NCBI GenBank assembly: GCA_002335605.1
Contig: BEDY01000007.1
Span: forward strand, 124,001 to 188,000
Reading direction: 5' to 3'
Origin: Prillingera fragicola
Taxonomy: Eukaryota > Basidiomycota > Tremellomycetes > Trichosporonales > Trichosporonaceae
Length of the DNA: 64,000 nt
Part shown: piece by piece, positions 27,857 to 64,000 of the stretch
Position numbering within the stretch: the stretch's first letter is position 1
Layout of the letters: each line of letters opens with the position of its first letter
Notes under the pieces: model-generated
Databases searched by the model: none
The model's input: only the letters and a program-made list of their open reading frames with translations
Told to the model about the DNA's origin: nothing
Position numbers and translations under genes: made by a program

Positions 27857-27863
27857 ATATAAA
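27857..27863 (+). promoter_or_regulatory. TATA box of the His-rich precursor gene
   Basis: ATATAAA lies 121 bases upstream of the ATG and is followed by a C/T-rich leader. A clean TATA box is unusual among genes in this window and suggests strong, regulated expression. Confidence 0.6.
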
Positions 27864-27983: not shown

Positions 27984-28709
27984 ATGCGCAGCGCCACACT
28001 CTTCACCGTTGTGGCACTCCTTGCCTCGGGCGTCATCGCTGCCCCCGTCGCAGAGGTCCAGGACCTGTCCGCCCGTGCCCCCGAGGCTGAGGCCCAGCCT
28101 GAGGCCGCCGTCATCGAGGCCCGCGACCCCGAGGCTGAGGCCGAGGCCGAACCTTTCTTCTGGGGACACCGTCATGGCCACGGTCACCACGGAGGTCACC
28201 ACCACGGTCACCACGGTCACCACGGCCACGGCGGCCACCACCACCACCACAAGCGCGATGGCGAGATTGAGGCTCGCGACGCCGAGGCTGAGGCCGAGGC
28301 CGAGCCGTTCTTCTGGGGACACCGTCATGGTCACGGCCACCACGGCGGCCACCACGGAGGTCACCACGGTCACGGTCACCACGGTCACCACGGACACCAC
28401 CACCACCACAAGCGCGATGGCGAGATTGAGGCTCGCGACGCCGAGGCTGAGGCCGAGGCCGAGCCGTTCTTCTGGGGGGGCGGCAGGCACCACCACGGCG
28501 GCCACCACGGTGGTCACCACGGTCACGGTCACCACGGAGGTCACCACGGACACCACCACCACCACAAGCGCGAGGCTGAGGCTGAGGCAGAGGCAGAGGC
28601 CAAGCCGTTCTTCTTCAACTGGTTCCGCAAGCCCGCCCACCACCACGGACACCACCACGGCGGACACCACGGCGGACACCACCACGGTGGGCACCACCAC
28701 CACCACTAG
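27984..28709 (+). CDS. Secreted histidine-rich repetitive precursor with Kex2-type (KR) and Glu-Ala processing sites
   Basis: A 241-residue intronless frame. Residues 1-20 form a signal peptide (hydrophobic LFTVVALLASGVIAA, cleavage predicted after AA20). Four units follow. Each has a run of alternating Glu-Ala, then PFFW (57-60, 108-111, 161-164) or PFFFNWF (208-214), then a Gly-His block ending in His5. Dibasic KR sites are at 90-91, 143-144 and 195-196, directly after poly-His. The last KR is followed by (EA)5, the arrangement trimmed by the Ste13-type dipeptidyl aminopeptidase in alpha-factor precursors. About 70 of 241 residues are His. Release of several secreted metal-binding-type peptides is inferred. 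I know no named family with this combination; it fits the broad class of Kex2-processed repeat proteins. An alternative is an unprocessed cell-wall His-rich protein. Confidence 0.85.
   Translation: MRSATLFTVVALLASGVIAAPVAEVQDLSARAPEAEAQPEAAVIEARDPEAEAEAEPFFWGHRHGHGHHGGHHHGHHGHHGHGGHHHHHKRDGEIEARDAEAEAEAEPFFWGHRHGHGHHGGHHGGHHGHGHHGHHGHHHHHKRDGEIEARDAEAEAEAEPFFWGGGRHHHGGHHGGHHGHGHHGGHHGHHHHHKREAEAEAEAEAKPFFFNWFRKPAHHHGHHHGGHHGGHHHGGHHHHH
28116..28706 (+). repeat. Coding tandem repeat, four units of about 135-160 bases
   Basis: Units correspond to residues 45-91, 92-144, 145-196 and 197-241 (28116-28256, 28257-28415, 28416-28571, 28572-28706). Units 2 and 3 are nearly identical at their starts (DGEIEARDAEAEAEAEPFFWG), which shows recent duplication. 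Unit 4 is divergent. Inner CACCACGG-type repeats make the array prone to copy-number change. Confidence 0.9.
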
Positions 28710-62305: not shown

Positions 62306-64000
62306 TTAGAGGAAGGTGCCGGGAGCAGCGCCGAAGTAGCCCTTCTCGGGCATGGCGAGCAAGGGGCATCCACCGACAGCCTCGCAACCGGTCTCGACCT
62401 CGGCGGCGTTGCCCCACCACTCGAGCGAGAGACCCGGGACCTCCATGGTGAAGAAGATGATGACTGCGGCGACAGCGCATCCAGTGCCGAAGGCGGCGGC
62501 AAGGATATAGTTGTACTTGGCCCAGAAAGCGAGGTAGCGCTTCTTGACAAAGCTCCACGAGATGAAGGTGAGGACAGTTCCGGGCCAGTAGTAGGCAAAG
62601 TTGTAAGGAGCCCACTGGATACCACCGTTGGCGATCATGACGGGGTGGAGAGCGCGGAAGACGCGAGCACGAGGGAACTGCTTCTGGAGACCCCAGCTGA
62701 TGAAGGGAAGAACAAAGCCGATGGGGAAGCCGAGGAGAATCATCGAGTAGCGACCGCCCTTGGCGAAGAGCCTGGTGGGGCCAATGGTACCCCAGAACAC
62801 GGAAGCGGTGAAGAAGGTGTTCTGGCCAGGGCACTTGAACTTGAAGGTGGCGTCGGGGGTGCAGACACCGTCGAGGTCCATCTGGAAGTTGTAGATCGAC
62901 GTGCAAACAATGGACGAGATGAAAGTGGCGACGAGCTGAGCCCAGAAGGTAAACTTGGGGGGGATCTTCGAGTAGTGGGCAAGCTTGAGGTCCTTGCAGA
63001 AGTCGATGGCGTGCTGGGTGGTAATGTAACCGTACATCTTGAAGTAGTTCATCGAGAGGGCCTCTCCGGGGGTGATGATACCACCAATGAACTCGGCAAT
63101 GACGTTGAGGGTGACAGGGGTACCGGTGACAGCCATGACGAGGCCGATGGGGATGACAAAGATGAAGGCAAGGAGGAGACCGTAGAGAGCAATAGCAGGC
63201 GAAGTGTTGGTGGGGTAGGCAGCGAGACCGGCGACACCAGCACCGACAGAGAACAGGAGGACCAGGAGGTACCACCACTCGGGGACCTCGGAGTACTGCT
63301 TCATGAGGCGGTAGTGGATGTCCTCGGCGAGGTGGTCGACGTCCTCCTCTCCCTCGGCGTTGCCGCGGCCCATGTTGCGCTTGAGGTCAGCCCAGAAGCC
63401 ACGGAAGCCCATGGCAAGCTCGTGGCGGTGGAAGAGAGCAGTGTACGAAACGGCTGCGGGTTGTCAGGACTGTGTCGAGAGCTGGGGGTCGGGTTACTCA
63501 CTGGCAGTGTACTGCATGAAGAAGAAGAAGTAGAGCATGATGTTACCGGCGCACATCCAGGGCTCCGAGTACGCCTGGAACTTGGCCATGTCAAAGCCGC
63601 CCTTGTCGTTGAGAATGTTGATGACCTTGTAGCGCTTTCCAGTGTTGGCAAAGGTACCGTTGCTGTTGATGGGGAGGTACGAGGTGTTCCAAGCGTTGCT
63701 GAACCAGACGGCAATGATGAGGAAGAAGCCGATGCACATGCCGAGGAACTGGTTCATGACGGCGAACTGGGGGAGAACAAGAGGAGTAAAGTTGGACATG
63801 TTCCAGTCGAATGTGGGCCAGGGGTTGAGACCGAGGCCACCAATCTGGCCAGTGATAGCGGTGAGGACGACGTTCTCGGGGGCGATCCAAGGAATCCAGT
63901 TGAAGTTGGAGAGAGCCTGGAAGATGAACGAGGGGAACCAGAACCAAACAAACATGGCGGCAAAGGCAATGTAGAAGAGCTTCATGCGCGACCAGGTGTA
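62306..64000 (-). CDS. OPT-family oligopeptide transporter, 5' end outside window
   Basis: Two exons are seen (64000-63502, open at the right edge, and 63453-62306), giving 548 residues of a family usually 750-900 long. Multiple membrane segments are present. Typical OPT pieces are NSFNW-like FNWIPWIAPENVVL with GGLGLNPWPTFDW, NEFLG-like MNQFLGMCIGFF, then EVPEWWYLLVL, IGLVMAVTGTPVTLNVIAEFIGGIITPGEALSMNYFK, and GGIQWAPYNFAYYWPGT near the C-terminus. It imports small peptides or glutathione across the plasma membrane with protons. The missing part is the N-terminal third. It converges on GH172 from the right, with 205 bases between stops. Confidence 0.92.

What the first reader, a model, noticed from the sequence alone, without database searches (positions are those of the whole stretch)
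27984..28709. Alpha-factor-style processed precursor that would release poly-histidine peptides
The sequence shows a signal peptide, four units, KR dibasic sites placed exactly after His5 blocks, and Glu-Ala runs before a conserved aromatic PFFW motif. Kex2/Ste13 processing of KR-(EA)n is established for mating-factor and other repeat precursors. Coupling it to His/Gly-rich, metal-chelating-type products with an aromatic head is not a family I can name. Acidic EA spacers may mask His blocks until trimmed. Inferred roles are zinc/copper/nickel scavenging, antimicrobial action or signalling.
Basis: partly seen in the sequence, partly recalled or inferred. Interest (0 to 1): 0.86.

Follow-up and report, generated by a model that had tools for sequence, protein, structure and literature searches.

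The report
Precursor of processed histidine-rich fungal peptides
A yeast-like fungus carries one gene for a secreted protein that looks built to be cut into four short, histidine-packed peptides that probably grip zinc or copper outside the cell; the cutting scheme is a known fungal one, but we found no description of this kind of product from it.

Summary
Window 27984-28709 (+) is an uninterrupted 241-aa ORF with a signal-peptide-like start, four units, three KR sites each directly after His5, in-phase X-Ala/X-Pro runs and FF[W/F] heads on four 32-34-residue cores (48-56% His). It is single copy in its assembly. It fits a named kind: Kex2-processed repeat proteins (KEPs) with a Ste13 signature, predicted in basidiomycetes (PMC6339444) and shown processed by mass spectrometry in some (PMC9769878). 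So I propose two cuts: IxAR opens a core, KR closes it. The genome holds a Kex2, a DPPIV-type protease with a hydrophobic anchor, and S10 carboxypeptidases. No clear homologue was found. Best reading: linear His/Gly peptides that bind Zn/Cu outside the cell and act as metal-dependent antimicrobial or metal-withholding peptides. Processing is a fair inference; function rests on analogy with shepherin and snake pHpG peptides. New variant of a known kind.

The parts
27858..27863 (+). TATA-box-like TATAAA, starting 126 bp before the ATG
   Evidence: only TATA[AT]A in the 1000 bp upstream, 0.23 expected from shuffles; sequence
27984..28709 (+). whole precursor gene, 241 codons plus stop, uninterrupted
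   Evidence: single copy
27984..28040 (+). signal peptide, residues 1-19 (cleavage place judged by eye)
   Evidence: hydrophobic stretch residues 4-19, mean KD 2.24; no signal-peptide predictor on hand
28041..28124 (+). leader (pro-region) residues 20-47, holding LSAR and ending in IEAR, two candidate single-arginine Kex2 sites
28125..28154 (+). unit 1 dipeptide run DP-EA-EA-EA-EP, in phase from the Arg
28155..28250 (+). core 1, 32 aa, FFWGHRHGHG...HHHHH (18 His, 10 Gly)
28251..28256 (+). KR site 1 directly after His5
28257..28277 (+). unit 2 spacer DGEIEAR, ends in an IxAR candidate Kex2 site
28278..28307 (+). unit 2 dipeptide run DA-EA-EA-EA-EP
28308..28409 (+). core 2, 34 aa (19 His, 11 Gly)
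28410..28415 (+). KR site 2 directly after His5
28416..28436 (+). unit 3 spacer DGEIEAR, ends in an IxAR candidate Kex2 site
28437..28466 (+). unit 3 dipeptide run DA-EA-EA-EA-EP
28467..28565 (+). core 3, 33 aa (17 His, 12 Gly)
28566..28571 (+). KR site 3 directly after His5
28572..28607 (+). unit 4 dipeptide run EA x5 then KP, directly after KR: the only literal KR-(EA)n
28608..28706 (+). core 4, 33 aa, FFFNWFRKPAHHHG...HHHHH (16 His, 7 Gly), at the C-terminus with no KR after it

Best explanation
The gene encodes a secreted Kex2-processed repeat protein. In the secretory pathway the signal peptide is removed; Kex2 cuts after KR (closing cores 1-3 and opening unit 4) and after IxAR (opening units 1-3); a Kex1-like carboxypeptidase removes the trailing KR; a Ste13-like dipeptidyl peptidase removes the Asp/Glu/Lys-Ala/Pro pairs up to FF. 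The products are four linear peptides of 32-34 residues, about half histidine, with a Phe-Phe-Trp or Phe-Phe-Phe head and no acidic residue. Outside the cell they bind Zn(II)/Cu(II)/Ni(II) through their many imidazoles and most likely act as metal-dependent antimicrobial or metal-withholding peptides against neighbours, possibly after assembling on a surface. Shown: the sequence, the sites and their phase, and candidate proteases in the same genome. Inferred: that cleavage happens, that metal is bound, and the role. My weight is about 0.75 on processing into peptides and about 0.35 on an antimicrobial or withholding role. The overall figure is for processed metal-binding peptides acting outside the cell, the role taken loosely; the first three rivals share the processing half, so the figures overlap and do not add to 1.
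For: All four [LI]xAR arginines and one of three KR arginines are followed by 5-6 in-phase X-A/X-P dipeptides; in the four of these five runs that lead a unit the run stops exactly at FF. Of 12 arginines only those four have an aliphatic P4 residue, and the in-core arginines (WGHR, GGGR, NWFR) have neither Lys/Arg at P2 nor aliphatic P4, so the scheme leaves the cores whole. Kex2 is described as taking LxxR with other aliphatic P4 and variable P2 (PMC8528282, passages). Kex2 candidate with S8 domain, P-domain and catalytic-type motifs in three exon pieces; one DPPIV_N/S9 protein with an N-terminal hydrophobic stretch; eight S10 matches at four places. Ste13-signature KEPs in basidiomycetes (PMC6339444, passages and section 9); such peptides seen by mass spectrometry (PMC9769878, passages). 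Function by analogy: shepherin I, a Gly/His peptide, forms fibrils and gains strong anticandidal activity only as its Zn(II) complex (PMC10698721, abstract and Introduction); snake pHpG peptides inhibit a metalloproteinase by disturbing its zinc (PMC12108757, abstract and section 3.1).
Against: No mass spectrometry, expression or orthologue data. Ala is not among the top five alternative P2 residues listed for Kex2 (PMC8528282), so cutting at IEAR may be partial. The phase evidence rests on about three independent sites, as units 2 and 3 are near-identical duplicates. The genome-wide count of KR-(D/E)A3 (1 match) equals its backwards-read control (1). None of the metal- or stress-response motifs tried occurs in the 1000 bp upstream (motif forms recalled, and fewer than about 1.4 of each expected, so a weak test). 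Metal binding does not tell scavenging from killing, buffering or a structural role.
Confidence: 0.55

Rival explanations
1. Processed as above, but the peptides serve the producer's own metal handling: secreted metallophores or buffers that take up or detoxify zinc, copper or nickel.
For: Very high His content in every core (48-56%); Candida albicans secretes a zinc-scavenging protein, Pra1 (PMC12663325, passages). HRXXH occurs literally in cores 1 and 2 (HRHGH).
Against: No Pra1-like domain: 0 Pfam families on the protein. No metal transporter recognised beside it among the ORFs scanned (not all genes were scanned). No metal-response motif tried was found upstream (weak test).
Confidence: 0.25
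2. Processed, and the peptides assemble into a surface coat, gel or fibrils (Rep1-like or like His-rich coacervates), giving hydrophobicity or adhesion.
For: Rep1 of Ustilago maydis is a Kex2-cut repeat protein whose peptides form amyloid-like fibrils (PMC8528282, passages). Zn-shepherin forms fibrils (PMC10698721). Histidine-rich squid beak peptides phase-separate with aromatic stacking (PMC6884462, abstract). The FFW heads could stack.
Against: No hydrophobic repeat beyond the head residues; the squid peptides rely on tyrosine and this protein has none.
Confidence: 0.15
3. Processed signalling peptides with a pheromone-like role.
For: Same precursor plan as ascomycete alpha-pheromones; a KEP with an alpha-pheromone-like core is reported from Trichosporon oleaginosus (PMC6339444).
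Against: The core has no cysteine and is low-complexity; no STE2 receptor match in the genome while STE3 is found in three exon pieces (no control genome rings for STE2, so absence is not proved). The last ten residues of the published peptide have no match here.
Confidence: 0.1
4. Not processed into peptides: an intact secreted His-rich protein whose repeats and KR sites are by-products of repeat expansion.
For: Low-complexity repeats expand easily; other frames are open over the same stretch; another secreted Gly/His-rich protein without such repeats exists in the genome (L002).
Against: Three of three KR sit exactly at unit ends, and the dipeptide phase is kept in the more diverged units 1 and 4. 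In the 18-codon IEAR...FFWG block units 1 and 2 differ by 4 synonymous and 1 non-synonymous codon, the latter Pro to Ala, which keeps the X-A/X-P rule; units 1 and 3 by 5 and 1; units 2 and 3 by 1 and 0. Small numbers.
Confidence: 0.15

Closest known systems
Kex2-processed repeat proteins (KEPs) with Ste13 signature in Basidiomycota (PMC6339444, PMC7329392, PMC9769878; passages and one section seen)
   Same: Signal peptide, repeated cores bounded by KR, X-A/X-P runs before the core; 0 Pfam and 0 NCBIfam families here.
   Different: Cores are 32-34 aa and about half His; entry to three cores is by a single-Arg IxAR site, not a dibasic one. KEPs with a histidine feature in the passages I saw are types G-3 and G-8 (di-His motif), both listed under Ascomycota (PMC7329392).
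Ascomycete alpha-factor / alpha-pheromone precursors
   Same: Processing plan: Kex2, Kex1, Ste13.
   Different: Core without the pheromone features described (no Cys); no STE2 match, STE3 present.
Shepherins of Capsella bursa-pastoris
   Same: Gly/His-rich linear antimicrobial peptides of similar length (shepherin I 28 aa).
   Different: Plant; 28.6% His against about half here; a single Tyr instead of an FFW head; no relation by descent claimed.
Snake-venom poly-His-poly-Gly peptides (pHpG)
   Same: Small secreted His/Gly peptides that act on zinc.
   Different: Animal; a His block followed by a Gly block; their precursor was not examined here.
Ustilago maydis Rep1
   Same: Basidiomycete Kex2-cut repeat precursor.
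   Different: Amyloid-forming peptides of the hyphal surface; not His-rich (composition recalled).

Membership tests
KEP (Kex2-processed repeat protein) | N-terminal secretion signal | tested here: met
   hydrophobic stretch by inspection and KD score; no predictor run
KEP (Kex2-processed repeat protein) | similar repeats separated by Kex2 sites | tested here: met
   four units, three KR at unit ends
KEP (Kex2-processed repeat protein) | peptides actually released | not testable with these tools
   needs peptidomics
Ste13-signature KEP | X-A/X-P dipeptides follow the Kex2 site in phase | tested here: inconclusive
   met after KR in unit 4 only; met after IxAR in units 1-3; after KR in units 2-3 the run is 0
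Ste13-signature KEP | Kex2 and Ste13-like proteases in the genome | tested here: met
   orthology by domain and motif, no tree made
Ascomycete alpha-pheromone | alpha-pheromone core | tested here: not met
   no Cys, low-complexity His/Gly core, 0 Pfam families
Ascomycete alpha-pheromone | STE2 receptor in the genome | tested here: inconclusive
   no match, but no control genome rang either; STE3 found
Dikaritin RiPP (ustiloxin type) | Tyr-bearing core | tested here: not met
   no Tyr in the protein
Dikaritin RiPP (ustiloxin type) | UstYa/DUF3328 enzyme gene | tested here: inconclusive
   no match in the genome, but no control genome rang
Pra1 zincophore | recognisable zincophore domain around HRXXH | tested here: not met
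   0 Pfam families; HRHGH in two cores is a literal but low-complexity match

The most novel reading that the evidence does not exclude
Fungi make gene-encoded, pheromone-style processed metallopeptides: an alpha-factor-type precursor has been turned into a dispenser of His-rich peptides that seize zinc or copper outside the cell and, once metal-loaded, switch on antimicrobial or surface-assembling activity.
Probability: 0.25. Interest if true: 0.72.

Novelty: new variant of a known kind. Interest (0 to 1): 0.5.

Why it matters
Basidiomycete mating pheromones are not made from alpha-type precursors, yet basidiomycetes carry alpha-factor-style precursors of unknown purpose (PMC6339444, PMC9769878, passages). 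Here the product's chemistry is so lopsided (about half histidine, no acid, aromatic head) that it suggests a directly testable function, extracellular metal binding. If true it would give one concrete answer to what these precursors are for and add a metal-dependent peptide class to fungi. It also suggests that surveys that look only for dibasic sites may place core boundaries wrongly where an IxAR site opens the core.

Tried and rejected
Homologue searches. The full protein gave one hit at E <= 0.01, P0002 (source label merc, no name), a Gly/Tyr-rich protein with KR-EAEAEP sites and no His-rich cores (E 1.5e-4, 30% identity over 39%), taken as similar plan or composition rather than orthology. 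Only the 7993 candidates sharing most words were scored, and His words may swamp them. Residues 1-66 gave 312 candidates, none with E <= 1. Control: a GST from the window gave 13 hits, four of them with species names (Apiotrichum porosum 58%, Cutaneotrichosporon spelunceum 48%, Vanrija albida 48%, Vanrija pseudolonga 48%). So the set holds Trichosporonales (order recalled), but the nearest is only 58% identical for an ordinary enzyme, and a fast-evolving low-complexity gene could be missed.

Species identity by the published T. oleaginosus peptide: no exact match to its last ten residues, so the species is left unnamed. The two further DNA matches in the genome lie in other His-rich stretches (L002, L003), not paralogues. 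Pheromone, RiPP and Pra1 readings: see the membership table. A terminal Cu(II) site of the X-X-His type is absent: no fully trimmed core has His at position 3. Structure prediction was not run: a lone low-complexity sequence would give an uninformative model.

Literature (titles and abstract starts of listings, unless said otherwise): 14 of 14 papers listed; 17 of 17; 20 of 30; 20 of 24; 10 of 1,236; 10 of 17; 15 of 93; 6 of 13; 10 of 17. None of the listed titles or abstract starts, nor the passages read, shows a fungal Kex2-processed precursor of strongly His-rich peptides. PMC5293756 reports a His-rich motif in four Rhizophagus secreted proteins, not tied to Kex2 in the passages seen. Supplementary tables of the KEP surveys could not be read, so a listed relative there is possible.

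Full report
What is there. The stated coordinates hold a complete, uninterrupted ORF of 241 codons with ATG and TAG. The protein has 70 His, 43 Gly, 32 Ala and 26 Glu in 241 residues, and no Tyr or Cys. It begins with a hydrophobic signal-like stretch and a short leader, followed by four units. Two other frames are open across the whole stretch and a third across part of it, as often in repeats; this frame is the one with an ATG-led signal-like stretch and the unit logic. A single TATAAA starts 126 bp before the ATG.

Anatomy. Cores: FFWGHRHGHGHHGGHHHGHHGHHGHGGHHHHH (32), FFWGHRHGHGHHGGHHGGHHGHGHHGHHGHHHHH (34), FFWGGGRHHHGGHHGGHHGHGHHGGHHGHHHHH (33), FFFNWFRKPAHHHGHHHGGHHGGHHHGGHHHHH (33). 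None has an acidic residue. Cores 1-3 are closed by KR directly after His5; core 4 ends the protein. HHHHHKR occurs three times; 12 of 20000 shuffles had one and none had more, with the proviso that the units are tandem duplicates.

A correction that matters. Counting X-Ala/X-Pro pairs in phase from each of the 12 arginines shows this only for unit 4 (EA x5, KP, then FFF). In units 2 and 3 KR is followed by DGEIEAR, with no in-phase pair; the run DA-EA-EA-EA-EP begins after the arginine of IEAR and ends exactly at FF. Unit 1 has the like (DP-EA-EA-EA-EP) from the leader's IEAR. A fourth such site, LSAR, lies in the leader and is followed by five in-phase pairs (AP-EA-EA-QP-EA), then AV. These four are the only arginines of 12 with an aliphatic residue at P4. 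The extended Kex2 motif is LxxR, with other aliphatic P4 residues allowed and P2 variable (PMC8528282, passages); [LI]xAR was also among the effector motifs searched for in PMC5293756 (passage). So the simplest reading is one enzyme, Kex2, with two site types: IxAR opening and KR closing. The internal unit looks like a copy of leader tail plus core. Ala at P2 is not among the top five alternatives listed, so IEAR cutting may be slow, or done by another protease. About three sites are independent, so the phase argument is suggestive, not strong.

Machinery in the same genome. One P-domain locus, whose neighbouring exon pieces give an S8 domain with VVDDG, DQHGT and GGTSAAAP motifs (assignment of the triad recalled). 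One DPPIV_N/S9 ORF of 934 residues with a hydrophobic stretch near its N-terminus, judged by eye, a candidate Ste13/Dap2. Eight S10 matches at four places, two of the matches with stop codons inside that may be introns; which is Kex1 was not determined. STE3 matched in three exon pieces and STE2 not at all (no control genome rang for STE2, so absence is not proved). No UstYa match (same proviso).

Copy number and relatives. Protein search of the assembly gives only the gene itself. Patterns for HHHHKR and EAEAEPFF match three times each, all here, control 0. KR followed by three (D/E)A matches once, here, but its backwards-read control also matches once, so that count alone is not above chance. 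In the large protein set there is no clear homologue, only one weak match, P0002. That set holds Trichosporonales: a GST from the window finds Apiotrichum porosum at 58%, Cutaneotrichosporon spelunceum and two Vanrija species among 13 hits. Fast-evolving low-complexity genes are hard to find with exact words, so 'no orthologue' is not shown.

Neighbours. Of 19 other window ORFs scanned with Pfam, the nearest with a match are THO complex subunit 1 upstream and a ribosomal S18-family protein downstream; others include COG7, PAP2, RPN6, ERO1, GH32, sugar transporters, GST, OPT, JAB and DUF2961; four ORFs had no match. Nothing resembling a biosynthetic cluster was recognised, but 24.2-27.9 kb and smaller or spliced genes were not scanned. 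The protein itself has 0 Pfam and 0 NCBIfam families.

Known kind. KEPs are defined by a secretion signal and repeats separated by Kex2 sites. PMC6339444 (passages, section 9) reports Ste13 signatures in basidiomycete KEPs and one KEP from Trichosporon oleaginosus with an alpha-pheromone-like core. PMC9769878 (passages) shows KEP peptides by mass spectrometry in Lentinula and Pleurotus, the Pleurotus ones from Ste13-type precursors, and trimming of a Coprinopsis one in Pichia. PMC7329392 (passages) gives an average of 1.00 KEP per strain in Tremellomycetes and notes a di-histidine motif in types G-3 and G-8, both listed under Ascomycota. So the precursor plan is known; the strongly histidine-rich 32-34-residue cores are what is unusual. 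I did not see the supplementary tables.

Function. No data. Imidazole-rich peptides of this density bind Zn(II), Cu(II), Ni(II) (established chemistry). Nearest tested analogues: shepherin I, 28 residues of Gly/His/Tyr, which on Zn(II) binding forms fibrils and becomes strongly anticandidal (PMC10698721, abstract and Introduction); snake pHpG peptides, which inhibit MMP-1 by disturbing its zinc (PMC12108757, abstract and section 3.1). I rank metal-dependent antimicrobial or withholding action first, self-directed metal handling second, surface assembly third, signalling last. The 1000 bp upstream show none of the metal- or stress-response motifs tried (forms recalled), which neither supports nor excludes regulation by metal in this lineage.

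Another hint. Locus L002 holds a second signal-bearing protein, with a KR at about residue 106 and a C-terminal Gly/His tract (GHGHGHGHGNGHGHG...), not a repeat precursor, and with an upstream TATATAAACCCCC resembling this gene's TATAAACCCCC. It may be a second, differently built, secreted Gly/His product.

Verdict. Real, well-formed and unusual; a new variant of a known kind. Interest 0.5.

Noticed in passing
L002 1350-2050 (- strand), G000:C7 near 967 kb: Second signal-bearing protein with a KR at about residue 106 followed by a long Gly/His tract, four cysteines in all; not a repeat precursor. Its upstream TATATAAACCCCC resembles the TATAAACCCCC of the finding.
   Followed up: partly
L003 1100-2000 (+): Open frame with HHGHHGHHGHHGYHGHHG followed by Lys-Pro-Gly and His-Lys repeats; function unknown.
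   Followed up: no
G000:C5:645596-646532 (L014-L016): STE3-type pheromone receptor in three exon pieces; no STE2 match.
   Followed up: partly
window 62306-63463 (-): ORF piece of an OPT-family oligopeptide transporter, about 34 kb from the finding; no link claimed.
   Followed up: no
P0002: Protein with source label merc and no name, with KR-EAEAEP sites and Gly/Tyr-rich (GYGYRGYG) blocks: a similar plan with a different core chemistry.
   Followed up: no
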